IMG/VR virus record: IMGVR_UViG_3300033153_005880
Span: 1 to 48,013 of that record
DNA from: a virus
Length of the DNA: 48,013 bases
Reading direction: 5' to 3' (one strand)
Of the stretch, positions 12,870 through 47,473 are shown one piece after another. Position 1 is the stretch's first letter; the number at the start of each line of letters is the position of its first letter. Below the pieces are notes generated by a model, which worked only from the letters and a program-made list of their open reading frames with translations, did no database searches and was not told the DNA's origin. The position numbers were made by a program, and so were the translations under genes.

Positions 12870-15316
12870 TACAATTTAGTTTATTCACACACGATTACGA
12901 AACTGGTAAACATTTTGATATCGATCAGAGCGATTCTACCGGAACCACATTAATTAATACTACTGCTGGCAGCATTAAAACGGCCCTGGTTGAAAAAATA
13001 AGTATTAATCACATCGAAGAACTCAAACAAATTATAGATGATGCCAGTGGGAGACAACATTTAACCATGGGGATCAGTGAACACGATACCGTAGGTGCAT
13101 CCTATGACGGTAAAATCGAAGGCAGTATTGCTCGTAATGATAAGTGCTTAAAGCCGCCCAATAGCGGTAATGCTTCATTGATGTGTGTTGATAGTGATGA
13201 TGTTGATGAGAGCGTTAGGGAGCAGTTACTTAATGCTGTGATAGGGTTGGGTTCATATGCTTGTGTTCAAACCACCAGTAGTAGCAGTAATATTTATCAC
13301 GATAACGGCTATGTTTACAGAGGTGTTAGTGGCCTGCATACTTTCTTTGCTGTTAAAGAAGGTAAAGATATTAAGAGAGCGTTGAGTGTTTTTCATAAAC
13401 GATTAATTATGGCAGGGTATGGTAACCATAAGATAAGTGGCGTGGGTGGTTTCTTGGAGCGGTCGGCAGTTGATAAGATGATGTCAGGTGCTAGTCAGCC
13501 TATTTATATGAAGGCGAATTTAGGGGATGGTCTGGTACAACGTAAGTCAGTTAAATACATCGATGGGGATATGGATATCATTGATACCCGAAAAGTATTT
13601 AAAAATTTAACACCGTATGAAAATGAATTGTATCAATCTATGGTGGATGGTGCTAAACAGAGTATGCAGGTTGAAATGGACCGTATTCGATGTGAATGGG
13701 AAGCTAAACAACCCAGCAAATCAACTGCCATGAGTGCGGTAAATGATAATGTGTTGATGGGTGATTTCATTATCGAAGCTAAGAGCGGTGCGGTGAATGT
13801 GGGCGATATACTTATGGCTCCTGAAAAATACCACGGTATGACCTGTCGTGACCCGATTGAACCAGAATACGGAAGTCATACCGTGGCTAAAATATTCTGT
13901 GATCAAAATATACCCGTCATTCACAGTAATGCTCATGGTGGTTGTAATTATAGAATGATGGATTTGTCCCGTATCGGCCTGGGTGAAGGGCGAATAAGTG
14001 TTGATGAGGTTAAGCAGTCTATCAATGGTGTTAATAGCGGTAATGAGATAATGATAATACCGCCGGTGGTTGGAGATGGTGTTGCGGTGGATACTGATAT
14101 TTATGTTCCTACTGCTAAATATGATATTCACGAAGGGATGGGGGAGTTAGAATGGAATGCTACTCATTTGAGTAATAGCGGTAAACCTTTTGCCACATTG
14201 TTTAATTTCAAACGAATGATGGATTTATACGGAATTTCTATATCTTATGACGTGATTAAAAAAGAAACCCGTATATTGGGTCAAAATATGGGTCTTGAAG
14301 GTGATATCAAAGATAATGCCAATCACGCTATCTTATATAATCTATGTCAACTTAATAAAATTGATACGGGATGCATTGACCAATATATTAATCAATTAAT
14401 GTTTCATAATCAAATTAACCCGGTAACAAATTGGGTAGGTAGTGTCGCGTGGGACGGTAAGGATAGGCTGAAGGAATTATTTAATACTCTGGACAGTGAG
14501 AGTGTCGGGGGTATTGACTATATGCTGTTTCGTAAGTGGTTTATGGGCGCATTGAGATTGGCTAAAGGTGAGATAAATAAATTTGAACACGTATTGATAT
14601 TTCAAGCATCTGAAGGGGGCGAAGGTAAAACTCGATGGTTTAATAAATTATGCCCCAGTGAATTGCAAATTGATGGAATGATACTGGATGTGGATAATAA
14701 AGATAAAGTAAAAGATTGTATCTCGCATTGGATTGTGGAGTTGGGAGAACTGGATAGCACATTTAAAAAAGATATTAAGAATTTGATGTCATTTTTAAGC
14801 ATGAGTAAAGATAATATTCGACTGGCCTACGGTAGACATGCAAATTCTTATCGTCGGAGGACTAGTTTCTTTGCGACTGTGAATAATGATTTGTTCCTGG
14901 TGGATGATTCAGGAGAACGTCGTTTTTGGCCCATTAAGGTAGGTAATGTAGACTACACGCATACGATTGATATGCAACAAGTGTGGGCGCAAGTTGATAC
15001 AATGACCGAAAATGAGTGGCTTAATCGGGAAGAAAATCAATTACTGATAGAAAACAATAAACAATTCAAAGCAACCAATCCTATCTATGAAATATTAGAA
15101 ACCTATTTTGAAAGAGATATCGTATCAAATGACACTGTGATAATTAATGCCACCGGAATATTAAAGAAAGCAGGTGTATTGCATCCTAATAGATCGCAAT
15201 TAGTAAGCTGTGCTTCCTGGTTAAAATCCCACCATTATAATCACGTTGATACTCATATTAATGGTAAAAAAATGAAAGGTTTTATAATTCCTAAGTTCAA
15301 TGAGATGTTTCTATAA
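12866..15316 (+). CDS. primase (PrimPol-like) fused to VapE-type helicase
   Basis: 816 residues. The N-terminal about 280 residues look like an archaeo-eukaryotic-type primase: MCVDSDDVDE (DxD-type motif I), then SGLHTFFAV (motif II His) and a basic region. The C-terminal half is a virulence-associated-E type AAA+ helicase: VAWDGKDRL, Walker A-like EGGEGKTRWF, ELGELDSTFKKDIKNL (Walker B region), and the typical RLAYGR-RRTSFFATVNNDLFLVDDSGERRFWPI. It probably both primes and unwinds at the phage origin. The adjacent 3' non-coding region full of repeats supports this. The last four codons form the first unit of a tandem repeat. Confidence 0.9.
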   Translation: MIQFSLFTHDYETGKHFDIDQSDSTGTTLINTTAGSIKTALVEKISINHIEELKQIIDDASGRQHLTMGISEHDTVGASYDGKIEGSIARNDKCLKPPNSGNASLMCVDSDDVDESVREQLLNAVIGLGSYACVQTTSSSSNIYHDNGYVYRGVSGLHTFFAVKEGKDIKRALSVFHKRLIMAGYGNHKISGVGGFLERSAVDKMMSGASQPIYMKANLGDGLVQRKSVKYIDGDMDIIDTRKVFKNLTPYENELYQSMVDGAKQSMQVEMDRIRCEWEAKQPSKSTAMSAVNDNVLMGDFIIEAKSGAVNVGDILMAPEKYHGMTCRDPIEPEYGSHTVAKIFCDQNIPVIHSNAHGGCNYRMMDLSRIGLGEGRISVDEVKQSINGVNSGNEIMIIPPVVGDGVAVDTDIYVPTAKYDIHEGMGELEWNATHLSNSGKPFATLFNFKRMMDLYGISISYDVIKKETRILGQNMGLEGDIKDNANHAILYNLCQLNKIDTGCIDQYINQLMFHNQINPVTNWVGSVAWDGKDRLKELFNTLDSESVGGIDYMLFRKWFMGALRLAKGEINKFEHVLIFQASEGGEGKTRWFNKLCPSELQIDGMILDVDNKDKVKDCISHWIVELGELDSTFKKDIKNLMSFLSMSKDNIRLAYGRHANSYRRRTSFFATVNNDLFLVDDSGERRFWPIKVGNVDYTHTIDMQQVWAQVDTMTENEWLNREENQLLIENNKQFKATNPIYEILETYFERDIVSNDTVIINATGILKKAGVLHPNRSQLVSCASWLKSHHYNHVDTHINGKKMKGFIIPKFNEMFL

Positions 15317-15427
15317 TTAAATTCATGTTTCTATAATTAAATTCATGTTTCTATAATTAAATTCATGTTTCTATAATTAAATTCATGTTTCTATAATTAT
15401 AATAGTCGTTTCTATAATTAAATTCAT
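15305..15427 (+). repeat. 20-bp tandem repeat at the end of the primase-helicase gene
   Basis: The unit ATGTTTCTATAATTAAATTC occurs four times head to tail (15305, 15325, 15345, 15365), then once with a diverged end (15385) and once more from about 15406. The first copy holds the last codons and stop (M F L stop) of the upstream gene, so every copy re-creates ATG TTT CTA TAA. The core CTATAATTA recurs at least nine more times, in both orientations, up to position 15710. Confidence 0.9.
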
Positions 15428-15517
15428 GTTAGTGACCACTAACTTTTGAATTTATAATTATAGAATGCCTTATAATTGAATCCTATAATTACCATTCTAT
15501 AATTATCATTCTATAAT

Positions 15518-19336: not shown

Positions 19337-19675
19337 TTAGTATTCATACGCTAAAAAAGCATATAAACTATTTAATTTTTGCATTGTGGTTTTATATGTG
19401 TATGTATAACATTTTGTAATTTCAGATAATAATTTTTCACTATCATAAAATCTTACGTTAGTATTTCTTTTTCCTAGTAAATTATAAATTTTGTTAGCAA
19501 GTTTTAAAACGTCTATATCTTGCTTGCTTTCACCAGTATGATGGTCTGAAATTAAATACATGCCTCCGGTTTTTCTATAAATGTTTGCGCCGAAAATTCT
19601 GTTTTCTTCGCCATTTCTGAAATTACAGAAACAATTAAGAATGATTGATTTAACCATAATATGTGAAAAGTCCAT
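19337..19675 (-). CDS. hypothetical protein, first gene of the leftward operon, 112 aa
   Basis: MDFSHIMVKSIILNCFCNFRNGEENRIFGANIYRKTGGMYLISDHHTGESKQDIDVL onward. It appears to be a small alpha/beta protein with a strand-rich N-terminus and a helical C-terminus. I recognise no family. AAGGAGATTAAGGAAATG supports the start. It is the promoter-proximal gene of the operon that ends with the RHH regulator at the origin region, about 80 bases from a TATAAT box and an FNR-like box. Confidence 0.6.
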   Translation of the reverse strand: MDFSHIMVKSIILNCFCNFRNGEENRIFGANIYRKTGGMYLISDHHTGESKQDIDVLKLANKIYNLLGKRNTNVRFYDSEKLLSEITKCYTYTYKTTMQKLNSLYAFLAYEY

Positions 19676-19756: not shown

Positions 19757-19794
19757 ATTATATAAGTTATTGTTATTTTCTTGATGTAGGTCAA
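19757..19794 (-). promoter_or_regulatory. candidate promoter with FNR/ANR-like box for the leftward operon
   Basis: TTGATGTAGGTCAA (19781-19794) matches nine of ten fixed bases of the FNR/ANR consensus TTGAT-N4-ATCAA. On the minus strand a perfect TATAAT lies at 19757-19762, 18 bases from the box, so the box would centre near -37.5 instead of the usual -41.5. A TATAAT on the plus strand at 19823-19828 is too far for class II activation. Confidence 0.5.
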
Positions 19795-20015: not shown

Positions 20016-20049
20016 TTGACTTAGATCAAGTTTCCTAGCTTTTTATAAT
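20016..20049 (+). promoter_or_regulatory. FNR/ANR-like box and TATAAT upstream of the terminase genes
   Basis: TTGACTTAGATCAA (20016-20029) matches nine of ten fixed FNR-box bases. A perfect TATAAT follows at 20044-20049, only 14 bases away, too close for standard class II activation, so here the box might repress or act from another start. It is 21 bases upstream of the small terminase ATG. Confidence 0.45.
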
Positions 20050-20069: not shown

Positions 20070-20681
20070 ATGGCATTTTCCGCTGAAACATGGATAGAAA
20101 TTAGACAGGAATACGAAAATATTGGCACTGCTGTTTCTGGCCTGGCTAAAAAGTATGATATGTCTGCTAGTGCTATTGATAGACGAATGAAGCGTGATAA
20201 GTGGATAAAGTTTAAAATTATCAAAGATGTTAAGCACCTGGTTAAAGCTGAGGTTAGAGCCACAAAGAAAAAAGTTAGAGCGAAGGAAGTTATAGTCGAA
20301 GCTGAAGAGGTTATACTTGCTGCTGAAGCAGAAGTAATGGATTTTCGTAAGGATATTGATACACAAACAGAATACTTTTCTAAAATCCATGAAGAAGAGC
20401 ATCGACAAATCAGCGTTAAGAATAGAGCAGAAGCAATTGCTGCAGAGGCCAGGCTTAAACTGGCTGAACAGAATCACAGATTAATTAACACTATCGACCA
20501 TAACGATGAGTTTGCTATACAAAAACATAATACCCTGGTTAATGCGAACAAAAACGTTGATACTTCCCGGCAATCTTCAGGTATCAAAATAGACAATTCC
20601 ACTACGAATAACACTCAAGTTAATATCACAATTGAAGAAACAAGAGAAAATTTAACTTCTCTTCTGGGTCAATATGATTGA
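20070..20681 (+). CDS. small terminase subunit
   Basis: 203 residues. The N-terminus MAFSAETWIEIRQEYENIGTAVSGLAKKYDMSASAIDRRMKRDKW is a helix-turn-helix DNA-recognition domain of the kind used to bind the packaging site. The middle is a long helical, Ala/Glu/Lys-rich stretch suited to ring oligomers, and the C-terminus is polar (SSGIKIDNSTTNNTQVNITIEE). It overlaps the large subunit start by eight bases. The ribosome site is weak. Size, HTH and position directly before the large terminase make the call strong. Confidence 0.85.
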   Translation: MAFSAETWIEIRQEYENIGTAVSGLAKKYDMSASAIDRRMKRDKWIKFKIIKDVKHLVKAEVRATKKKVRAKEVIVEAEEVILAAEAEVMDFRKDIDTQTEYFSKIHEEEHRQISVKNRAEAIAAEARLKLAEQNHRLINTIDHNDEFAIQKHNTLVNANKNVDTSRQSSGIKIDNSTTNNTQVNITIEETRENLTSLLGQYD

Positions 20682-22317
20682 TTTAAAAGCTCTGGCTCAT
20701 CAAATCCGGGACAAAGTTCCCCAGATGTCCCAAGTTGATGCAGACAAAGCGACCACATATTTTAATGATATTGTTAAGGATGAGTGTGAGAAATCCCTAG
20801 AACAGTTTGTAAAATCTACCTGGCATATTATAGAACCTGGTACTACTTTGGTCTGGAACTGGCATTTAACTGTTATCTGTGAATATCTCGAAGCAATTGC
20901 AGATACTAGAATAAAGCGATTAATACTCAATATTCCACCTGGTACAATGAAAAGCACCTTAGTTTCTGTCTGTCTACCCGCTTGGCTTTGGATTAAAGAG
21001 CCAGAGCGACGCATTTTAGGTATAACCAACGAACAGGGACTAGCTTTAAGAGATGCAGGAAAAGCTAAATTGATAGTTGCTTCTGATTGGTTCCAAGGTA
21101 AATGGCCTCTGGACTTCGATCCTTCCCAGAATGAAAAGACTTTATACCAAAATGTGAAGCGTGGAATAAGGCAGTCATTAGGTATAACGGGTAGAATTAC
21201 GGGTAAACGGGGTAATTTGCTATTAATTGATGATCCACACTCGGTAACTGAGGTTGAATCGGAAGCAATGCGGGCAACGGTTATTGATAAGTACGACCAG
21301 GAGATAACTTCACGTTTAAATGATATGAATAATGATCCAATCATTCTCATTATGCAGCGTATTCATTATCAAGATTTAACTGGGCATTTGATGGAATTAA
21401 CAGATGACTGGACGCAAGTTTCTATAGCTATGGAGTACGACGGCTCTTCTGGCTTCAATGGTGCAGATATTGATAGACCGGATTTAAAAGATCCTCGAAC
21501 CAAAGACGGTGAACTTCTATTTCCTCAACGCTTCAACCGTAAAACAATAGAAACACTTAAGAAACATTTAGGCTCATTTGGTACAGCGGGACAGCTTCAA
21601 CAATCACCCGTTCCTAAAGGTGGTGGTATTATTAAGGACTATTGGTGGAAAACATGGCCTGATGATAAGCCCCTTCCACGGTGTGAACATCTATTCTCTA
21701 GTTGGGACACAGCATACAGTGAAGCAGACCTTAAGAACAATGCATATTCAGCAATGACAATGTGGGGTGTATTCTGGAATGAGACAGCGAATGATGATAA
21801 AGGTGCATATTGTTTGTTATTAACTAAAGCTTGGGCTGGTCAGGTCGGTTTTCCTGATTTACGAAAGAAAGCGAAAGAGTTAGATAAAACAGATAGATTA
21901 GATAGTCAACTGATAGAGAAGAAAGCCAGCGGTATCTCATTGGTTCAAGACTTAAGACAAGCTGGTCTAAAGATAAGAACCTACACACCAGATAGAGACA
22001 AAGTTGCAAGGGCTTACTCAGTATCTGCTATGTTTGAAAGTGGACAAGTTTATATCCCTAATCGCAAATGGGCTACAAAAGTAGTTAATAACGTCGCTCA
22101 GTTTCCTAATGGTGCGCCACCGTCGGCAGATATCACAGATACGGTTACACAAGCATTAATTTATTTAAGAAACAACTGGTGGGTATCTCACCCTGATGAT
22201 CCATTAAACAACGACATAAACACCCAGCACAATGACGAAATTGCAAAACAGAATCATGAATGGGATAATGATATAGACGATATAACAGTAACTAAGGTAC
22301 AGCCAGCATATAGTTAA
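20674..22317 (+). CDS. terL: large terminase subunit
   Basis: 547 residues with an N-terminal ATPase (Walker A variant IPPGTMKSTL, Walker B LLLIDDPH, coupling region IILIMQRIHYQDLTGHLM) and a C-terminal RNase H-like nuclease (SSWDTAYSEADLKNNAYSAMTMW, then LLTKAWAGQVGFPDL, IEKKASGISLVQDL and ITDTVTQALIYL). It drives DNA into the prohead and cuts the concatemer. The layout is that of Terminase_6-type proteins. It overlaps the small subunit gene and is 12 bases from the portal gene. A phylogeny of this protein would help to predict the packaging mode. Confidence 0.95.
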   Translation: MIDLKALAHQIRDKVPQMSQVDADKATTYFNDIVKDECEKSLEQFVKSTWHIIEPGTTLVWNWHLTVICEYLEAIADTRIKRLILNIPPGTMKSTLVSVCLPAWLWIKEPERRILGITNEQGLALRDAGKAKLIVASDWFQGKWPLDFDPSQNEKTLYQNVKRGIRQSLGITGRITGKRGNLLLIDDPHSVTEVESEAMRATVIDKYDQEITSRLNDMNNDPIILIMQRIHYQDLTGHLMELTDDWTQVSIAMEYDGSSGFNGADIDRPDLKDPRTKDGELLFPQRFNRKTIETLKKHLGSFGTAGQLQQSPVPKGGGIIKDYWWKTWPDDKPLPRCEHLFSSWDTAYSEADLKNNAYSAMTMWGVFWNETANDDKGAYCLLLTKAWAGQVGFPDLRKKAKELDKTDRLDSQLIEKKASGISLVQDLRQAGLKIRTYTPDRDKVARAYSVSAMFESGQVYIPNRKWATKVVNNVAQFPNGAPPSADITDTVTQALIYLRNNWWVSHPDDPLNNDINTQHNDEIAKQNHEWDNDIDDITVTKVQPAYS

Positions 22318-28658: not shown

Positions 28659-30243
28659 TTATTTAATGTATCTAGCACTACCCGCATCGAATAATCTATA
28701 CCAACCATTATTGTTACAGTTCTCTACTTCTGTTAATTCAGTTCATCATAGATTGACGACTTACCGTTTTTTTACCTTTTGTATATCTATAATTAGGTTT
28801 AGTTATATAATCTAATTTAAAACCCGCTTTCAAATAACTAGCACCACCGAAAAAAGATAAATCACAAAATGAAAATGTTATATCTTCATCTTTAATCAAT
28901 TTTGGTAAAGCACCTAATATTTGCCATCCGTTTTTAACAACATAACGTATCAGTTCTCCTAGTTTATTATAACCAATACAAGCAACTAACTCACCATTAT
29001 AATATAAACCCTTCTTAACACTCGCACCTCTGAAACCTTGTAGATGATGAGAGCATAACTCTTTATATTCGTTATTACTGATATCTTTTTTTACTGTTTT
29101 CCTTGCACCAATACGCCGGTCAAAAATACCTAATTGTGACTTAAGTAAACTCTTGACTAGTTCTTTTTGTTCCAACCACTGATCTTCTCTTATGTGTATA
29201 CATCGTAAGCCGTTAGTTTTTGCTAAATCAGATTTAATTCGTATATTATATATATCTGGTCTTTTGTATTCACTATGGAAGAAACTTCCATTAAATTCTA
29301 TTATCATATTCAGTTTAGGGATATAAATATCGGCTTCTTTCTTAGTACCTTTAAATAAACTTCGATTACTTCGCTCTATACTAAAACCTAAACTTACTAT
29401 AAAGTTAGCTACTTGTTTCTCTAATTTAGATACTTTCTCGATACATTTTGGACAACCATTACCAGTCAGATGGTCGTTGGGGCGCTGTAGAAAATCGTTA
29501 TGTTTCAAGCAGGTTATCGATACTTTGTTTTTATTTCCTGAGTAAATAACGTTATCATACGTATATACGTTGTTATGTTTCGCTGTAGCTTTTAATATGA
29601 ATTGTTCTTTTGTCATTACTAATGATTTGGCGGCTATCTCTTTAACGCATTTCGGACAATTTGACCCTTCCATGTGATCTCCAGCAATTTGGCGAAACGT
29701 ACCGTGTTTTGTACATTCTATATTTATTTTCGTTCTACTGTCCTTGTATTCACTATCTGCGTAGTTGTATTTATTTCCATGCATTAATTTTGCTTTCTGT
29801 ATAAACTTGTCTTTCGTGTATCTTCTTTTATCAGCCCTAGAAACAACACTACATTTCAAACAGCCGTTTTTAGCACGTAGATGTTGGTGCGGTTCCTGTA
29901 AGGTTGGTCCGTGTATCTTGCATATAATTTTAACTTTGGTTGTAGCATTGACATACTGCATTTCTGAGTAGTTAAATCTGTCTCCATACATTAATTTTGC
30001 TTCATGCAGAAATTCAGATAATGTTTTAATTAGGTTTTTACGATTAATTAACCCACACTTTGGGCAACCATGCGTGCGATTAATGTGTAAATTAGGTTGC
30101 TGTAAAAACTCTCCATGAATCTTACAGTCAATCTTAACTTTGGTTTTTGAACCTTCGTATTCTACTGTATCATATGAATACAAATCCCCATGAACAGCGC
30201 GCGCTTTCTTTATAAATTCTTTTGTAGTTAATTTCTTTGACAT
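28659..30243 (-). CDS. homing endonuclease-like protein: four zinc-repeat units plus Vsr-like nuclease (C-terminus frameshifted)
   Basis: Four units of about 65 residues (F-x2-KA-x3-HG-x2-Y-x-Y, a KVxIxC strand, HGxFxQ-x-P-x2-HL, GCPKC) fill residues 1-270. Then comes a Vsr/EDxHD-type nuclease core: EADIYIPKLNMIIEFNGSFFH (catalytic Asp/Glu region) and GLRCIHIREDQW. The C-terminal part resembles phage homing proteins (HLQGFRGASVKKGLYYNGELVACIGY). The main frame stops at 28738, but the neighbouring frame continues with TELTEVEN and GWYRLFDAGSARYIK to 28659, the usual family ending, so one extra base near 28740 seems to truncate it. It is probably a selfish element in the virion operon. Confidence 0.8.
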
Positions 30244-30345
30244 GTGTAATTCTCCAGTTTAAGAATTATCAGTAGTTGAGTGTGTGAGTAGCAAGTTACT
30301 GAAGCTTGTATTCGGTCGCTAAACCTAACTCACACTTTTAGTGTA

Positions 30346-30564
30346 TCAAACTTTAACTACTCTATCAATCCCGATAGTTACATCATTGCCGAATTTTTTA
30401 CATTGAACATATATGATGGCGAAAGTATCTTTTTGATCTTCCGTTAACTCAGTGTAAGGAATGGTTAAATCAAAATTAATATACTTTAACTTATTGGCTC
30501 GACACTCTACATCATCGTAAGCCATGGCGTTAAAAGATAAAAGTAAGAGGATTAGTGTTTTCAT
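30346..30564 (-). CDS. small secreted or periplasmic protein, 72 aa
   Basis: From MKTLILLLLSFNAMAYDDVE the first 15 residues form a signal peptide with an AMA-like cleavage site; the mature part (YDDVECRANKLKYINFDLTIPY, then IIYVQCKKFG) has two cysteines that could form a disulfide. A longer start at 30591 adds MKKCCIVIG but lacks a ribosome site. The predicted transcription start of the FNR-type promoter is at 30565, one base before this ATG, so the mRNA may be leaderless or the start a little different. It lies in a leftward island within the virion genes. The function is unknown. Confidence 0.6.
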   Translation of the reverse strand: MKTLILLLLSFNAMAYDDVECRANKLKYINFDLTIPYTELTEDQKDTFAIIYVQCKKFGNDVTIGIDRVVKV

Positions 30565-30571
30565 ACCTATT

Positions 30572-30613
30572 ACTATACAACATTTTTTCAATTTTGTAAT
30601 TGACCTAGATCAA
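30572..30613 (-). promoter_or_regulatory. class II FNR/ANR-type promoter for the secreted-protein gene
   Basis: In the direction of transcription the box reads TTGATCTAGGTCAA (30600-30613), nine of ten fixed FNR-box bases, then a spacer of exactly 22 bases and TATAGT (30572-30577). This puts the box centre at -41.5, the class II activation position. The box sits at the very end of the Gln-rich gene. The same arrangement occurs at 47432-47473. Confidence 0.65.
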
Positions 30614-34266: not shown

Positions 34267-36138
34267 ATGAGTTTAAATACTTTTCCTCTAAATACTGCAC
34301 CACTTAATACCTTCTGTGGTCTTAATATATTTGCTACTACGGCAACGGTAGTTATCGATGAGCAACCTGCAGTAATTGGTTATTCTTTAGAGGTTCCTGC
34401 AACACAAGATAGTTTAGTTATCACAGAACAACCCGCTTCACTTAATCTGGGTATAAATATTCATGCGGGTCGTGATATCCTCGTTATTACCGAAAGATTA
34501 GCTTCATTATCGTTAAATACTAATATTCCCGCCGCACAAGATAGTTTAACTATCACTGAACAAACAGCTACACTCAACCTTGCTTTAAATATTCCCGCAG
34601 TACAGGACAGTTTAGTTATTACAGAATATCCTACTACACTGATATTAGGTAATGCGATTCAAGCAGTACAAGATAGTTTAGTTTTGATTGAACAGTTAGC
34701 CGCAGTTAAAGCGGATACTACGATTACTACTGTACAAGACAGCCTTGTTATAGCAGAGCAATTATCCGTTATCGGTATCAGCACCAATATTAGTGCAACA
34801 ACAGATACTCTTGCTATCACTGAATATTTAGCTAGTTTAAATAACACCATAGATATTCGAGCGACATCTGATAGTTTAGTTATAGACGAGAAAGAGGCAA
34901 CCTTAAAAGCTGATTTAGGTATTCAGGCTGTACAAGATACACTGAGCATAACAGGTCAAGAAGCCATTGTTAATATCGGTGGTGATATAGGCTGTACGGT
35001 AGATACACTATCCATAACCGAGCAACTCGCAAGTATTAATGCAAGTATAAATATATCTGCAGAATTAGATACAATCGTTATATCTGAACAAGATATTATA
35101 TTAGGTATCAGTCATAATATTGCTGGTATTACAGATACACTGGTAATAGAAGAACAGTTAGCAATTGTAAAAGCTGATACGACTATATCTACAGAGTTAG
35201 AAACATTAGTAATAGCGGAACAAACAGCTAGTCTTAATGCGGGTATAGATATAGCAGCTAGTTCTAAATCGTTATCTTTAACAGAATATACAGCTTCGGT
35301 AGGTATAGGCTTAAATATTTTAGCAGAAGTAGATACGATAGTTATATCAGAACAAACAGCTAGTCTTAGTTTAGATACTAATATTACGACTGATACAGAA
35401 GCATTAGTAATAACAGAGCAACTAAGTACAGTACAATTAGATACAGCAATTGATGCCTCTTCGGATAATTTAGTATTAACTAAATATCAATCATTAATTA
35501 GTATTGATATTGATATAACAGCAACTACCGACACAGTTGTTACAACAGAAAATCAAGCAGCCGTAAGTATTGGTTTAAATATTGTAGCAACAACAGATAC
35601 TTTAATTATAGCGGAATATCCCGCTGCACTTGTTGAAGATATCAATGTAACGACAACTACAGATTCACTTATTATAAGTGAACAGTTAGCAATTATTAAT
35701 GTCGGGCTAAATATTGATGCATCAAGTGATGCCTTATCTCTTACGCAATACCCCAGTAGTATTAATATTATACAGAATATTCAATCTGTACAAGATGCTC
35801 TTAATATAAGTGAACAGTTAGCAAGCATTAATGTTGCTACGAATATCAGTACTACTCCTGATGTACTTTCTATTACAGAATACCTCGCTAGTATAAAAGT
35901 AGAACAAATAATATCCGGTGGACGAGATTCACTGATTATAACTTCGTTTACTTCCAATATTATTTTAGGAACCAATATCCATACCTCAGTATATGAATTG
36001 ACTATTACCGGACCTCCTGCAGATATAATAGGTTCGGCAACTATACCTGACTTTTCATCTAGGCGAAATATAGGTATAATTGCTAAAGATAGAAATATAG
36101 ATATTAAAATTGGTAACAGAAATATAATTATAGTTTAG
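34267..36138 (+). CDS. repeat fiber protein: 26 copies of a 22-residue beta repeat
   Basis: 623 residues. After a short N-terminus (MSLNTFPLNTAPLNTF), about 26 consecutive units of 22 residues follow, each like DSLVITEQPASLNLGINIPA with variation: D-(S/T)-L-x-I-x-E-(Q/Y)-x-A-x-(L/V/I)-x-x-x-x-x-I-x-A. The alternation of hydrophobic and polar residues suggests a beta-solenoid or a stacked-hairpin fiber. The C-terminus changes to a basic segment (SRRNIGIIAKDRNIDIKIGNRNIIIV) that may cap or attach. DNA copies have diverged while the protein pattern holds, so selection keeps the repeat. Intact despite its length and repetitiveness. Confidence 0.85.
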   Translation: MSLNTFPLNTAPLNTFCGLNIFATTATVVIDEQPAVIGYSLEVPATQDSLVITEQPASLNLGINIHAGRDILVITERLASLSLNTNIPAAQDSLTITEQTATLNLALNIPAVQDSLVITEYPTTLILGNAIQAVQDSLVLIEQLAAVKADTTITTVQDSLVIAEQLSVIGISTNISATTDTLAITEYLASLNNTIDIRATSDSLVIDEKEATLKADLGIQAVQDTLSITGQEAIVNIGGDIGCTVDTLSITEQLASINASINISAELDTIVISEQDIILGISHNIAGITDTLVIEEQLAIVKADTTISTELETLVIAEQTASLNAGIDIAASSKSLSLTEYTASVGIGLNILAEVDTIVISEQTASLSLDTNITTDTEALVITEQLSTVQLDTAIDASSDNLVLTKYQSLISIDIDITATTDTVVTTENQAAVSIGLNIVATTDTLIIAEYPAALVEDINVTTTTDSLIISEQLAIINVGLNIDASSDALSLTQYPSSINIIQNIQSVQDALNISEQLASINVATNISTTPDVLSITEYLASIKVEQIISGGRDSLIITSFTSNIILGTNIHTSVYELTITGPPADIIGSATIPDFSSRRNIGIIAKDRNIDIKIGNRNIIIV

Positions 36139-44254: not shown

Positions 44255-44581
44255 TTATTCTGTCTCTTTTTGATTATCCAATAAGTGCTTCACCATATTT
44301 ATAACACTGCTATGTTCTGAGTTAGAATAGCGTCCGGTACTTCCTACCTCAAGAGTATCGCGTACCTCTTTAAGCTGTCTAATAGCATCCGCGTTATCGT
44401 TAATCAGGTTTAATCCTACCTTTATAATTTTATATAGGAGTGTAAATATAAATACGCCCATAGCGTAACCTATAATCTCTACTCCTGTATAAGTCATTAA
44501 GTAATATATAAAGCCCTGAGTAGCGTTATCTCCAAGCCCTGATATTAACGTTACAATTTGTTCTAATTCGCTTGTTTTCAT
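44255..44581 (-). CDS. membrane protein with C-terminal helical domain, 108 aa
   Basis: An N-terminal helix, then a hydrophobic segment about residues 25-58 (GFIYYLMTYTGVEIIGYAMGVFIFTLLYKIIKVGLNLI, probably one or two spans), then a polar helical tail (ADAIRQLKEVRDTLEVGS). The layout is reminiscent of small holin-like or superinfection-exclusion membrane proteins, but it is encoded leftward away from the lysis cassette. Its ATG overlaps the upstream TAA region (44578-44581). Confidence 0.6.
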   Translation of the reverse strand: MKTSELEQIVTLISGLGDNATQGFIYYLMTYTGVEIIGYAMGVFIFTLLYKIIKVGLNLINDNADAIRQLKEVRDTLEVGSTGRYSNSEHSSVINMVKHLLDNQKETE

Positions 44582-45108
44582 TTAAATGCTCCTTTATCGA
44601 TAATCATAAGGCGTGCAACTTTAGACCAGTCGAGTACGTCAATACCTATAATTGGAGTAGATGGATAATCTCTATCTTTACACCATATTAGTATAATTAG
44701 CTTCTCTAGCCCTTCTGGACATTTATCCTCACCACTATGAGCAATCCATGTATTGCGTGGCGATTCTTCTATAGTTGGGATTCTTAGTTCTTCCCAACCT
44801 ATGTCACGACTATCATTACATTCTTTAGTATAAAACCTAGATAAAACTACACTATAAAAAGAACGTAAAACCCAATTATTACAACCATCTCTTACCATCA
44901 CAGGCGCACCTTTAAATATGTTCTGTAGTAGGTTTGGTTTTGGTTTGAAGTTATTAGTAAAGGCAGGGTTGACAACACAGCCTAAGCAATTTTTCATAGA
45001 TGTATATTGGTATTTGCATTCATTGCACTTATCCATTTTATTTTCCTTATCTGCTAATAAATAAAATATATAGTTAAAACCACTGGTAGGTTCTTTGTCT
45101 ATATTCAT
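44578..45108 (-). CDS. protein with C-terminal HSGxxCPEG-type phage domain, 176 aa
   Basis: The N-terminal part has a cysteine set (CNECKYQYTSMKNCLGC) that may bind zinc. The C-terminal part WIAHSGEDKCPEGLEKLIILIWCKDRDYPSTPIIGIDVLDWSKVARLMI matches a small domain repeated in many phage proteins: W-x2-H/W-x-G-G-E-C-P-x-P, a V-x-V strand, then DWxxV-x-x-x-x-I. The same domain ends the protein at 45671. Its function is unknown. Overlaps both neighbours by four bases. Confidence 0.65.
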   Translation of the reverse strand: MNIDKEPTSGFNYIFYLLADKENKMDKCNECKYQYTSMKNCLGCVVNPAFTNNFKPKPNLLQNIFKGAPVMVRDGCNNWVLRSFYSVVLSRFYTKECNDSRDIGWEELRIPTIEESPRNTWIAHSGEDKCPEGLEKLIILIWCKDRDYPSTPIIGIDVLDWSKVARLMIIDKGAFK

Positions 45109-45299
45109 TTTGTTAACTCTTTTAACTTCTTAATCATTTCATCAATACTTTTAGGGTACATAGAAAATTCTTTTAAATCGTCTAATTTCTCTGCAACTTC
45201 TAACAAGAATGCATCGTCTTTAATAGTTAATACTGTATAACCCATGTGACCACAAGTACAAGGCGTGTTCCAACATTCTGGGCAGTCTGATAGGCTCAT
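45105..45299 (-). CDS. small cysteine-containing protein, 64 aa
   Basis: MSLSDCPECWNTPCTCGHMG at the N-terminus gives a C-x2-C-x4-C-x-C set typical of a short zinc knuckle often seen in phage early proteins; the rest (YTVLTIKDDAFLLEVAEKLDDL) is strand then helix. ATGA-type overlaps on both sides show tight coupling. The function is unknown. Confidence 0.65.
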   Translation of the reverse strand: MSLSDCPECWNTPCTCGHMGYTVLTIKDDAFLLEVAEKLDDLKEFSMYPKSIDEMIKKLKELTK

Positions 45300-45496
45300 T
45301 TTAATCTCCTTAAGTGTTTACGTTCACGCGCTAAATCTATTGGGTATTGTTTCATATCTTCTTCACTATCAAAGGAATAACATTTACCTAAAGAAAAGAT
45401 ACAAATCATTTGAGGCTCGCCTCCTAATACAGGCTTCAGCTTTTCTGGAATTGGTGGACCCGTAAATAGCTCAGTCGCTTTTATGAGCTCGCTCAT
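45296..45496 (-). CDS. hypothetical protein, 66 aa
   Basis: MSELIKATELFTGPPIPEKLKPVLGGEPQMICIFSLGKCYSFDSEEDMKQY then a basic end with RERKHLRRLK. Small alpha/beta protein with no known motif. It starts one base after the upstream stop and overlaps the 64-aa gene by four bases. Confidence 0.6.
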   Translation of the reverse strand: MSELIKATELFTGPPIPEKLKPVLGGEPQMICIFSLGKCYSFDSEEDMKQYPIDLARERKHLRRLK

Positions 45497-45497
45497 T

Positions 45498-45680
45498 CTA
45501 CTTCTCCAATAGTTGTCCTAGCATAAAATGGAGTTGTTCTGCCATCTCCTTGCTACATAATGTTATTTCTGAGTCGCTATCCCCACGCACCTCTAATACC
45601 ACACAGCACAGATTTGATTTTTTATCTTTTTGGACACATATTTCGTCTACACTTTCATGTGCCGTTTTGTTTATCCCCAT
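45498..45680 (-). CDS. hypothetical protein, 60 aa
   Basis: MGINKTAHESVDEICVQKDKKSNLCCVVLEVRGDSDSEITLCSKEMAEQLHFMLGQLLEK: strands followed by one helix, with four cysteines. It overlaps the end of the 171-aa gene by ten bases. I recognise no family. Confidence 0.6.
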   Translation of the reverse strand: MGINKTAHESVDEICVQKDKKSNLCCVVLEVRGDSDSEITLCSKEMAEQLHFMLGQLLEK

Positions 45681-46186
45681 CCATCTGCTGTGCCTGTGAT
45701 TTTGAAGGCTGTAATAGCTTTCCAGTCTAAAATGCCATCATCATACTTACCTATATTATGCATCGTAGCTATTTGGTAATAGCTATTTACGTGTTGATAC
45801 GCAATAACTAACCCTTCAGGAATAGGACACTCACCACCTTGCCAGCTGTGCCAGGTATCTTGGCGTACTCTGCACTGTTCATAAAGATTATCATTAGTTG
45901 AAACATATTTCGATGTAGCGTTATATTGAATCGCTTTTAATTTACTTATTTGTAATCCTAACCCAAACTCCATATCTATTTGGCTGGTTATCACAATACT
46001 TAAGTCTATCTTCTTAACTTTTGGTTTGGGTGGGTTGACTTTAAAATTCTTAAGTCTAGTTATATCTAAATCTATTATTGGATATTTATAGTGTGAGTAA
46101 TCTTTGCTGGTCACACCATTCTTATTCTCAGCCAGTTCAGTCCAGAATTTAGCAAAAAATTCTATTTTTTCTTGATTAGTATCCAT
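45671..46186 (-). CDS. protein with C-terminal GGECPxP-type phage domain, 171 aa
   Basis: N-terminal helical region (EKIEFFAKFWTELAENKNGVTSKDY), a linker with PPKPKVKKIDLS, a middle of unknown type, and a C-terminal module WHSWQGGECPIPEGLVIAYQHVNSYYQIA, then GILDWKAITAFKIT. This is a compact domain widely reused in phage early proteins (W-x-W-x-GGECP-x-P, V-x-V, DW-x-x-I-x-A-F-x-I); the domain also ends the 44578 protein. It looks like a small beta module that binds something small, though nothing is proven. Confidence 0.68.
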   Translation of the reverse strand: MDTNQEKIEFFAKFWTELAENKNGVTSKDYSHYKYPIIDLDITRLKNFKVNPPKPKVKKIDLSIVITSQIDMEFGLGLQISKLKAIQYNATSKYVSTNDNLYEQCRVRQDTWHSWQGGECPIPEGLVIAYQHVNSYYQIATMHNIGKYDDGILDWKAITAFKITGTADGWG

Positions 46187-46195
46187 CCATCACCT

Positions 46196-46420
46196 CTATT
46201 TATTATGCTCACATTCACTACAAGTAATTAAGCAATTATCTTTTCCTGCATCAGGGCAGGTATCACTCAGCTCATCAGTCCATTTGTCAAATCCATCAGG
46301 CTCTTTAATCTGCTCACTAGCCCGTAATAAATGCTCAATTACTTCAATCTCATCATTGTATTGAGTAGCATTTATAATATTTTGGGCTAAGTGGTTTATT
46401 CTTTGTTTTTCTGGTGTCAT
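46196..46420 (-). CDS. hypothetical helical protein, 74 aa
   Basis: MTPEKQRINHLAQNIINATQYNDEIEVIEHLLRASEQI, a helical hairpin, then an acidic loop and a C-terminal cysteine set (CPDAGKDNCLITCSECEHNK) that could hold zinc. The ATG abuts the end of the previous gene. No family recognised. Confidence 0.62.
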   Translation of the reverse strand: MTPEKQRINHLAQNIINATQYNDEIEVIEHLLRASEQIKEPDGFDKWTDELSDTCPDAGKDNCLITCSECEHNK

Positions 46421-46590
46421 TACAGTCTATCCCATCCATAAGGCTCACTTTCATCTTTTGGTTTATAGTAATCGCTTAACCATGATTGATGTTTACATGA
46501 GCTACAGTAAGTTTCTTGTATTAGTTCTTCTACTTCACCCCTATGTGTACAAGTAGAGCAATCTATCTCAGGTACGTTATCTTTTCTCAT
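46420..46590 (-). CDS. zinc-ribbon protein, 56 aa
   Basis: From MRKDNVPEIDCSTCTHRGEV, with a second set YCSSCKHQSWLSDYYKPKDE: two CxxC pairs plus nearby His, a compact zinc-binding protein of a type that is common in phages (C-x2-C-x3-W-x-D-x-Y-x-P). The ATG at 46588-46590 has GGAGAGGAAAAGA upstream and is preferred over a TTG five codons earlier. It overlaps the end of the 54-aa ribbon gene. Confidence 0.65.
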   Translation of the reverse strand: MRKDNVPEIDCSTCTHRGEVEELIQETYCSSCKHQSWLSDYYKPKDESEPYGWDRL

Positions 46591-46741
46591 TCTTTTCCTC
46601 TCCAACCAACCCTTTAATGAAAATAGATTTCTGCCCTGGCTTAAGTCTAAATTCTACTTTATATCCACAGTCACAAACTTTTAAATTCATGCTAGTTAGA
46701 ATAATTAATCCGCACCCACAATCAGGGCATTTGCTTTTCAT
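46577..46741 (-). CDS. small zinc-ribbon protein, 54 aa
   Basis: MKSKCPDCGCGLIILTSMNLKVCDCGYKVEFRLKPGQKSIF, then a charged end. Two pairs, CPDC and CDC(G), frame a classic small zinc ribbon. Its ATG overlaps the TGA of the 100-aa gene (ATGA). Missed by length limits. A role in nucleic-acid binding is likely but unproven. Confidence 0.65.
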   Translation of the reverse strand: MKSKCPDCGCGLIILTSMNLKVCDCGYKVEFRLKPGQKSIFIKGLVGEEKNEKR

Positions 46742-47031
46742 CCCCATTTTTGACACATAGGATTATTTATATGCACATGCGTTAAATGCTCGGCATTGGC
46801 TAATTTCTCTTTTTCATTAAGCGGGATTTCATCCTGATACGCCCTTGTTCTAACACCCATTAATGATTTAATATCTGCTTTGGAGAGATGGTCTTTTTGT
46901 AACTCACCTAACCGTAATATAAACCTAGCATAATTTACGTGTTTTTTATTAACATGCTTATACTTATCAAATATTTCTTTGTTAGTCATGGCAATGCCAC
47001 CTATCATGTATACCTTTTTAGGTCTGCTCAT
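46738..47031 (-). CDS. hypothetical basic protein, 97 aa
   Basis: MSRPKKVYMIGGIAMTNKEIFDKYKHVNKKHVNYARFILRLGELQ then KADIKSLMGVRTRAYQDEIPLNEKEKLANAEHL. The part around DIKSLMGVRTRAYQDEI looks helix-turn-helix-like, but I would not call it one. An ATG three codons upstream is also possible; GGATGATAAAA favours the chosen start. It overlaps the previous gene by 14 bases. Confidence 0.6.
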   Translation of the reverse strand: MSRPKKVYMIGGIAMTNKEIFDKYKHVNKKHVNYARFILRLGELQKDHLSKADIKSLMGVRTRAYQDEIPLNEKEKLANAEHLTHVHINNPMCQKWG

Positions 47032-47242
47032 TTTTATCATCCATATAATATATCCGCATATCCAATATTTCAGTATAACTTACCATTACATTAAGTTGAG
47101 CTTTCATTAACACTTGTTGCTCTATAGGTAATTTTAGTAATTTTTCATCCATGTCAATAAAATGAAATAAGTTATGCATTTTTAAATCCAGTTCTTCTTT
47201 TTCTGATTTTAATCTTTCTATTATGCTATCTATATTATCCAT
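47018..47242 (-). CDS. hypothetical coiled-coil protein, first gene of the right-end leftward operon, 74 aa
   Basis: MDNIDSIIERLKSEKEELDLKMHNLFHFIDMDEKLLKLPIEQQVLMKAQLNVMVSYTEILDMRIYYMDDKN: two long helices, probably a coiled-coil hairpin. This pattern (helix, F-x-x-x-E-x-x-x-x-L-P, helix) is a recurring one in phage small proteins. AGGAGAATAATTTATG supports the start. It is 183 bases downstream of a predicted FNR-type transcription start and just after the hairpin region. Confidence 0.65.
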   Translation of the reverse strand: MDNIDSIIERLKSEKEELDLKMHNLFHFIDMDEKLLKLPIEQQVLMKAQLNVMVSYTEILDMRIYYMDDKNEQT

Positions 47243-47264
47243 AAATTATTCTCCTATTTATAAA

Positions 47265-47327
47265 TTAGCAATATCAACTCTTTGAATAACTATTGCTAAT
47301 AGCTTTTATAATTATAAAAGCTATTAG
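47265..47327 (-). promoter_or_regulatory. leader with a 32-bp perfect palindrome and a competing hairpin
   Basis: A perfect palindrome spans 47296-47327 (half CTAATAGCTTTTATAA). TATTGCTAA at 47291-47299 is also the exact reverse complement of TTAGCAATA at 47265-47273, and this second stem uses four bases of the palindrome, so the two hairpins exclude one another. Both lie in the predicted mRNA leader before the 74-aa gene, the second one about 15 bases from the ribosome site. Confidence 0.65.
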
Positions 47328-47431
47328 CCTGACCTGTGTCAGCTCATATGTGTTTTCTGTTTATAAAATCACTAGTTAATTAGTGCATGACGTTCACCTC
47401 TCTGTTTGTGTTTAGTCCAGGTTAAAAATAC

Positions 47432-47473
47432 ACTATATACCTATAATTTTGATTTGTAATTGACTTAGATCAA
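47432..47473 (-). promoter_or_regulatory. class II FNR/ANR-type promoter for the right-end operon
   Basis: In the transcription direction TTGATCTAAGTCAA (47460-47473; nine of ten fixed FNR-box bases) is followed after exactly 22 bases by TATAGT (47432-47437). The box centre is at -41.5 from a start predicted at 47425. The arrangement and the flank just after the box (TTACAAA) are the same as at 30572-30613. Confidence 0.65.

What the first reader, a model, noticed from the sequence alone, without database searches (positions are those of the whole stretch)
47432..47473. Class II FNR/ANR-type promoter geometry at the right-end early operon
Directly seen: TTGAT-CTAA-GTCAA, then exactly 22 bp, then TATAGT, reading leftward. 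Established knowledge: FNR, ANR and related CRP/FNR regulators bind TTGAT-N4-ATCAA and activate class II promoters from -41.5, which needs just this spacing. Inference: the host's oxygen sensor turns on this phage operon. Phage promoters wired to FNR would be unusual, so infection could depend on oxygen level.
Basis: partly seen in the sequence, partly recalled or inferred. Interest (0 to 1): 0.8.

Follow-up and report, generated by a model that had tools for sequence, protein, structure and literature searches.

The report
Phage promoters wired to host oxygen/nitric-oxide sensor
This phage carries promoters built to be switched on by its host's FNR-type sensor of low oxygen or nitric oxide, and many unrelated phages, including known E. 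coli, Klebsiella and cholera phages, carry the same design, so parts of infection may depend on oxygen or nitric oxide.

Summary
On the minus strand TTGATCTAAGTCAA is followed by 22 bp and TATAGT, with a predicted start at 47425. It is not chance: the window has four perfect TTGAYN4RTCAA boxes (order-3 Markov mean 0.58), and two (47460, 30600) have the same 22-bp/TATAGT layout (expected 0.01). An orthologous promoter in a related contig keeps 40 of 42 bases although the neighbouring genes on both sides are replaced.

A full viral-contig scan gives 48 stretches at spacing 22 and 8 at spacing 25. The 22-bp hits are mostly intergenic and often precede an RBS and start codon. In those phages, boxes outside the query also sit 22 bp from a -10. 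The same layout precedes anaerobic nrdD in Escherichia, Klebsiella, Salmonella, Aeromonas and Vibrio phages, including 121Q, RaK2 and ICP1. In bacteria it precedes hcp, norC and a globin gene. The window encodes no CRP/FNR-type protein.

Best reading: a class II promoter activated by the host's CRP/FNR-family regulator. Whether the signal is low oxygen (FNR/ANR) or nitric oxide (DNR) cannot be read from sequence. The host is unknown, and nothing was tested at the bench. I found no published description of FNR-driven phage promoters.

The parts
47460..47473 (-). CRP/FNR-family box TTGATCTAAGTCAA (extended C-TTGATCTAAGTCAA)
   Evidence: conserved as TTGACCTAAGTCAA in L362
47432..47437 (-). -10 hexamer TATAGT, exactly 22 bp from the box (box centre at -41.5)
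47425..47425 (-). predicted transcription start (inferred from the -10, not mapped)
   Evidence: inference from geometry
47243..47425 (-). 183-nt leader, strongly folded (z = -3.8), conserved in L362 although the first gene differs
47380..47388 (-). two-codon mini-ORF ATG CAC TAA after AGAGAGGTGAAC, conserved in L362
47295..47328 (-). 34-bp perfect palindrome in the leader; outer stem GCTAATAGCT/AGCTATTAGC mostly kept in L362, loop changed
44255..47242 (-). leftward operon of small genes read from this promoter (47018-47242, 46738-47040, 46577-46756 and on to 44255); mostly no known domain, the first gene crAss001_48-related
30600..30613 (-). second CRP/FNR box TTGATCTAGGTCAA
   Evidence: present in L143
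30572..30577 (-). -10 TATAGT, 22 bp from the second box; the ATG at 30564 lies at the predicted start, so the mRNA may be leaderless
28738..30564 (-). two-gene cassette, antisense to the late genes, under the second promoter: 72-aa protein with a signal-peptide-like N-terminus (30346-30564) and a 501-aa DUF723/DUF4379 protein (28738-30243)
19781..19794 (-). third box (TTGACCTACATCAA on minus) with AATAAT at 21 bp or TATAAT at 18 bp, upstream of the leftward operon starting at 19675; plausible class II promoter, weaker case
20016..20029 (+). fourth box in the same divergent region; TATAAT at 20044-20049 (+) only 14 bp away, so not class II geometry; role unknown (repression or alternative positioning)
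20070..20681 (+). first gene of the rightward operon, directly before TerL (20674-22317); putative small terminase by position only

Best explanation
The site is a sigma-70 promoter with a poor -35 element and a CRP/FNR-family box centred at -41.5. A host regulator of the FNR/ANR/DNR type would bind it when oxygen falls, or when nitric oxide appears, contact RNA polymerase as a class II activator, and start transcription at about 47425, through a structured leader, into the leftward operon of small genes. A second identical promoter drives a two-gene cassette at 30564-28738, and a third may drive the operon at 19675. The phage encodes no CRP/FNR-type protein, so it reads the host's sensor. Shown by sequence: box, spacing, -10, recurrence, conservation, absence of the regulator from the window. 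Inferred: binding, activation, start site, timing of the operon and the physiological signal.
For: (1) Exact geometry, twice in the window, against 0.01 expected. (2) Ortholog L362 keeps TTGACCTAAGTCAA-22-TATAGT, 40/42 bases identical, while the gene upstream and the first gene downstream are different; the one change in the box stays inside the FNR consensus. (3) Scans of all viral contigs: spacing 22 gives 48 stretches, spacing 25 gives 8. After merging duplicates, 31 distinct with 23 intergenic and 16 intergenic plus RBS/ORF, against 6, 2 and 0. In the variable-spacing scan, intergenic 15/19 at 22 against 15/66 elsewhere, Fisher 1.3e-5. (4) Independent check: in phages with a hit, boxes not matching the query also lie exactly 22 bp from a -10 (16 of 58 strand-boxes; none at 20, 21, 23, 24), and nearly all precede a start codon. 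Control contigs show 2 of 101. (5) 45 distinct phage promoters give C-TTGAT-NTAR-GTCAA-G/T; 36 have RBS+ORF, median 24 nt after the -10; a C at -49 not asked for by the query is 91% conserved; -35 matches are mostly only 2-3 of 6. (6) Known phages: box plus -10 at 21-23 bp upstream of nrdD in 7 of 13 lineages examined, including 121Q, RaK2, Munch, GAP32, muut, 4L372XY and ICP1. (7) In 84,980 bacterial and archaeal genomes the pattern plus GG precedes hcp, norC and a truncated globin gene. (8) No HTH_Crp_2 in the window. (9) 4 matches in 369 Gammaproteobacteria genomes against 2 in 48 kb here.
Against: No binding, start-site or expression data. Host unknown, so the presence of an FNR-type protein there is assumed. 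The box 20016-20029 is not in class II position. The -10 TATAGT is one base off consensus. The operon's genes are mostly of unknown function, with no obvious link to anaerobic life.
Confidence: 0.86

Rival explanations
1. Same promoter, but the sensor is a nitric-oxide-responsive member of the family (DNR/NnrR/HcpR type), so the operon answers denitrification or nitrosative stress rather than low oxygen as such.
For: The Dnr site is reported as indistinguishable from the Anr box (PMC5398030). Bacterial genes behind the same pattern are largely nitric-oxide related: hcp x4, norC x3, truncated globin.
Against: In phages of facultative anaerobes the layout precedes anaerobic nrdD, a gene needed without oxygen. 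Oxygen and nitric-oxide regulators often share targets, so neither is excluded.
Confidence: 0.4
2. The box is an operator for a phage-encoded repressor or activator unrelated to CRP/FNR, and the FNR likeness is coincidental.
For: Four near-identical boxes in intergenic DNA look like a phage operator set; one (20016) is outside class II position.
Against: Exact FNR/DNR consensus, exact -41.5 spacing, poor -35 elements, and the same layout in unrelated phages and before FNR/DNR-type genes in bacteria. No CRP-type HTH in the window, though other HTH folds were not exhaustively excluded.
Confidence: 0.08
3. CRP (cAMP) rather than an FNR-type protein binds the site at -41.5.
For: Same protein family and same class II position (established knowledge).
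Against: CRP half-sites are TGTGA/TCACA (established knowledge); all four window boxes read TTGA/TCAA.
Confidence: 0.03
4. Chance resemblance in AT-rich phage DNA.
For: Two of four boxes are not perfect class II promoters; single boxes do occur by chance (mean 0.58).
Against: Two exact copies in one 48-kb genome, orthologous conservation, 22-bp enrichment in two independent tests, control spacing low.
Confidence: 0.02

Closest known systems
Class II FNR/ANR-dependent bacterial promoters
   Same: TTGAY-N4-RTCAA box, centre at -41.5, good -10, poor -35; same pattern precedes hcp and norC in bacteria
   Different: Located in a phage genome and driving phage operons; strong preference for a GTCAA proximal half-site; regulator supplied by the host
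DNR/NnrR/HcpR (nitric-oxide responsive) promoters
   Same: Site not distinguishable from the ANR box (PMC5398030); norC and hcp targets carry the same pattern
   Different: No nitric-oxide response shown; host unknown
nrdD promoters of phages 121Q, PBECO4, RaK2, Munch, GAP32, muut, 4L372XY, ICP1 (found here; no description found in the papers searched)
   Same: Perfect box 21-23 bp from a -10
   Different: There it precedes one anaerobic enzyme gene; in the window it precedes operons of unknown small genes and a cassette
Cyanophage genes under host PhoB control (from memory, not checked here)
   Same: A phage promoter reads a host environmental sensor
   Different: Phosphate two-component regulator, auxiliary genes only; different protein family and signal

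Membership tests
Class II CRP/FNR-family promoter (FNR/ANR type) | Palindromic box TTGAY-N4-RTCAA | tested here: met
   47460-47473 and 30600-30613, no mismatch
Class II CRP/FNR-family promoter (FNR/ANR type) | Box centre at -41.5, i.e. 22 bp to the -10 | tested here: met
   22 bp at both sites; 22-bp enrichment in related phages
Class II CRP/FNR-family promoter (FNR/ANR type) | Sigma-70 -10 with weak -35 | tested here: met
   TATAGT (5/6); best -35-like hexamer ATTACA; across 45 promoters mostly 2-3 of 6 matches
Class II CRP/FNR-family promoter (FNR/ANR type) | Conservation of box and spacing in an ortholog | tested here: met
   L362, 40/42 bases
Class II CRP/FNR-family promoter (FNR/ANR type) | Host encodes an FNR-type regulator | not testable with these tools
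   Host not identified; viral record only
Class II CRP/FNR-family promoter (FNR/ANR type) | Oxygen-dependent activation in vivo and binding in vitro | not testable with these tools
   needs bench work
DNR/NnrR/HcpR-type promoter | Site sequence | tested here: inconclusive
   Not separable from the ANR box (PMC5398030)
DNR/NnrR/HcpR-type promoter | Activation by nitric oxide | not testable with these tools
   needs bench work
CRP (cAMP) promoter | TGTGA-N6-TCACA half-sites | tested here: not met
   Half-sites are TTGAT/GTCAA
Phage-encoded CRP/FNR regulator with its own operators | CRP-type HTH gene in the phage | tested here: not met
   PF13545 absent from the window; in 20 related records 3 weak hits, one over the cut-off in a cellular bin rather than a phage record

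The most novel reading that the evidence does not exclude
A set of phages of low-oxygen or denitrifying habitats uses the host's FNR/DNR-family regulator as a main activator, with 2 to 6 class II promoters per genome, so that infection is gated by oxygen or nitric oxide. The nrdD promoters of phages such as 121Q, RaK2 and ICP1 are the isolate-level counterpart.
Probability: 0.55. Interest if true: 0.88.

Novelty: new variant of a known kind. Interest (0 to 1): 0.78.

Why it matters
Oxygen is known to change phage infection, but the phage side of the response has been treated as passive: two papers on phages and anaerobiosis mention FNR only as a host regulator. If phage promoters are wired to FNR/DNR, phages sense oxygen or nitric oxide through the host and can switch gene sets, for example anaerobic nucleotide synthesis, when they enter gut, sediment or denitrifying cells. 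Because the layout is present in phages that grow on laboratory E. coli, the idea can be tested directly.

Tried and rejected
Close relatives of the phage through TerL and DNA polymerase: none in viral contigs, none by megablast. Phage-encoded CRP/FNR: rejected. Known RNA families in the window or leader: none. Host identification: not achieved; IMG sample numbers gave no paper, protein relatives are too distant. The ATCAA form of the box with 22 bp and TATAAT is mostly chance inside coding sequence (65 distinct, 7 intergenic with RBS), so the case rests on the GTCAA form, the nrdD set and the internal tests. Box-like palindromes in Nitratiruptor phage NrS-4 and part of Thiohalocapsa phage MD03: none. 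Ten paper searches found no description of FNR-driven phage promoters; subscription journals are mostly not covered.

Full report
1. The observation. The minus strand at 47473-47432 reads TTGATCTAAGTCAA, 22 bp, TATAGT. The 22-bp gap places the box centre at -41.5 for a start at 47425. The window is 36% G+C and holds four perfect TTGAYN4RTCAA boxes: 19781, 20016, 30600 and 47460. Order-3 Markov sequences of the same composition hold 0.58 on average; two of the four real boxes are 22 bp from a 5/6 -10, against 0.01 expected. The second copy, at 30613-30572, was found independently as a repeat pair (D9).

2. The phage. The window is a 48-kb viral record with a PolA-type DNA polymerase, terminase, portal and adaptor genes. 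Relatives among named phages are distant: polymerase 41% to Edwardsiella phage MSW-3, terminase 41% to Roseobacter phage CRP-902. An 8.3-kb contig, L143 (IMG 3300033148), is essentially identical to about 23-31 kb of the window, so the window probably comes from the same sample series.

3. Orthologous conservation. A related contig, L362 (IMG 3300033143), is about 82% identical over 46191-47033. Its operon is preceded by TTGACCTAAGTCAA-ttacaaatcaaaaatataggta-TATAGT. The alignment keeps 40 of 42 promoter bases although the upstream gene is unrelated and the first downstream gene is missing; the one change in the box (T to C) stays within TTGAY. The leader is also kept: AGAGAGGTGAACRTC-ATG-CAC-TAA, the outer stem of the 34-bp palindrome, and the stretch before the first gene. 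A more distant relative (terminase 30%) has TTGATCTAGGTCAA-22-TATATT in the corresponding divergent region beside its terminase genes.

4. The layout is recurrent in phages. A scan of viral contigs with spacing 17-27 stopped at 120 stretches; among distinct hits, those at 22 bp were intergenic in 15 of 19 cases against 15 of 66 at other spacings (Fisher 1.3e-5), and intergenic with RBS and ORF in 9 of 19 against 5 of 66 (2.4e-4). Full fixed-spacing scans gave 48 stretches at 22 bp and 8 at 25 bp; after merging duplicates 31 against 6, of which 16 against 0 are intergenic with RBS and ORF. Many hits come from contigs of IMG samples 3300033141, 148, 149, 153 and 388.

5. A test not built into the query. 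In phages that have a hit, the remaining TTGAYN4RTCAA boxes, which do not match the query, were examined for a -10 at any spacing from 10 to 35. Sixteen of 58 strand-boxes had it at exactly 22, none at 20, 21, 23 or 24, six at 17 and five at 19; control contigs had 2 of 101 at 22. Several of these phages carry 3-6 such promoters in 20-53 kb. Whole bacterial genomes that carry a hit have one or two, and 369 Gammaproteobacteria genomes have four in all. The 45 distinct promoters give a consensus C-TTGAT-NTAR-GTCAA-G/T, 22 bp, TATAAT; 36 have RBS and ORF, median 24 nt downstream; the C at -49 is 91% conserved although not asked for; -35 hexamers are poor.

6. Bacterial counterparts. The pattern with GG after the box occurs 42 times in 84,980 genomes. 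Reading the encoded proteins (identified by me from their sequence, not by a domain scan), the genes behind it include the hybrid-cluster protein (four), norC (three), a truncated globin, and in Firmicutes and Mollicutes many metal-binding (HMA-like) proteins. The first three are textbook FNR/DNR/HcpR-family targets (established knowledge). This supports the view that the pattern marks working promoters of this regulator family.

7. Known phages. One viral hit was Escherichia phage 121Q, upstream of its anaerobic ribonucleotide reductase nrdD. The box and a -10 at 22-23 bp are kept in Asteriusvirus (121Q, Sharanji, PBECO4, slurp01, SD-1_S14), Alcyoneusvirus (RaK2, KP13-7), Munch and GAP32. They are also present at 21-22 bp in muut (TAAAAT), Aeromonas phage 4L372XY (TAAAAT) and Vibrio phage ICP1. 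In ICP1 the annotated start overlaps the box; the better start is a TTG after AGGAGAG downstream, directly before the ATP-cone domain. Vibrio phages VmeM-32 and Wyman have perfect boxes at other positions. KE23, a T4-like and a Felix O1-like phage have none, and a T5-like phage has one with a mismatch.

8. Mechanism. The phage has no CRP-type HTH, so the regulator must come from the host. The best reading is class II activation by an FNR/ANR/DNR-type protein. [quoted passage not shown]). Of the other two boxes, 19781 has AATAAT at 21 bp and may be a third promoter; 20016 is not in class II position.

9. Literature. Ten searches of the open library found no report of FNR-driven phage promoters. 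Two papers on phages and anaerobiosis discuss FNR only as a host regulator (PMC10734468, PMC7599459). Subscription journals are mostly absent, so novelty is provisional.

10. Limits. No binding, start mapping or expression; host and habitat unknown; the sample series is inferred from neighbouring IMG numbers only; the functions of the operon's genes are unknown, so what the phage gains is not explained.

Noticed in passing
window 47243-47425 (-): Structured leader (z = -3.8) with a conserved two-codon mini-ORF ATG-CAC-TAA behind a good ribosome-binding site and a 34-bp palindrome; kept in L362 although the first gene differs. Could be a regulatory leader or small RNA.
   Followed up: partly
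window 30346-30564 and 28738-30243 (-): Cassette antisense to the late genes under the second promoter; the ATG lies at the predicted start site, suggesting a leaderless mRNA. The 501-aa DUF723/DUF4379 protein has a 36% relative in a 241-kb phage contig (L361).
   Followed up: partly
window 15285-15430: Four to five 20-bp direct repeats (ATGTTTCTATAATTAAATTC) right after the primase/helicase gene; iteron-like, possibly a replication origin.
   Followed up: no
window 34388-35897: Diverged tandem repeats of 66 bp (22 aa) within the 623-aa ORF 34267-36138, probably a repetitive tail or fibre protein.
   Followed up: no
L228 350-440 (ICP1_2006_C): Annotated start of nrdD (TTG at 350) overlaps a perfect box-22-TATAAT promoter; the better start is the TTG after AGGAGAG, just before the ATP-cone domain.
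   Followed up: partly
L110 1215-2042 (-) and L024 3339-3851 (+): Genes directly behind such promoters in other phages encode a Band_7/SPFH protein and a pentapeptide-repeat protein.
   Followed up: no
L192 (JAFCGI010000029.1): 5-kb contig binned as Pacearchaeota carries a phage-like gene behind the same bacterial-type promoter; probably a mis-binned phage.
   Followed up: no
L165-L204, Firmicutes and Mollicutes genomes: The pattern repeatedly precedes small metal-binding (HMA-like, CPSC motif) proteins, suggesting a shared FNR-like metal/nitric-oxide regulon there.
   Followed up: no
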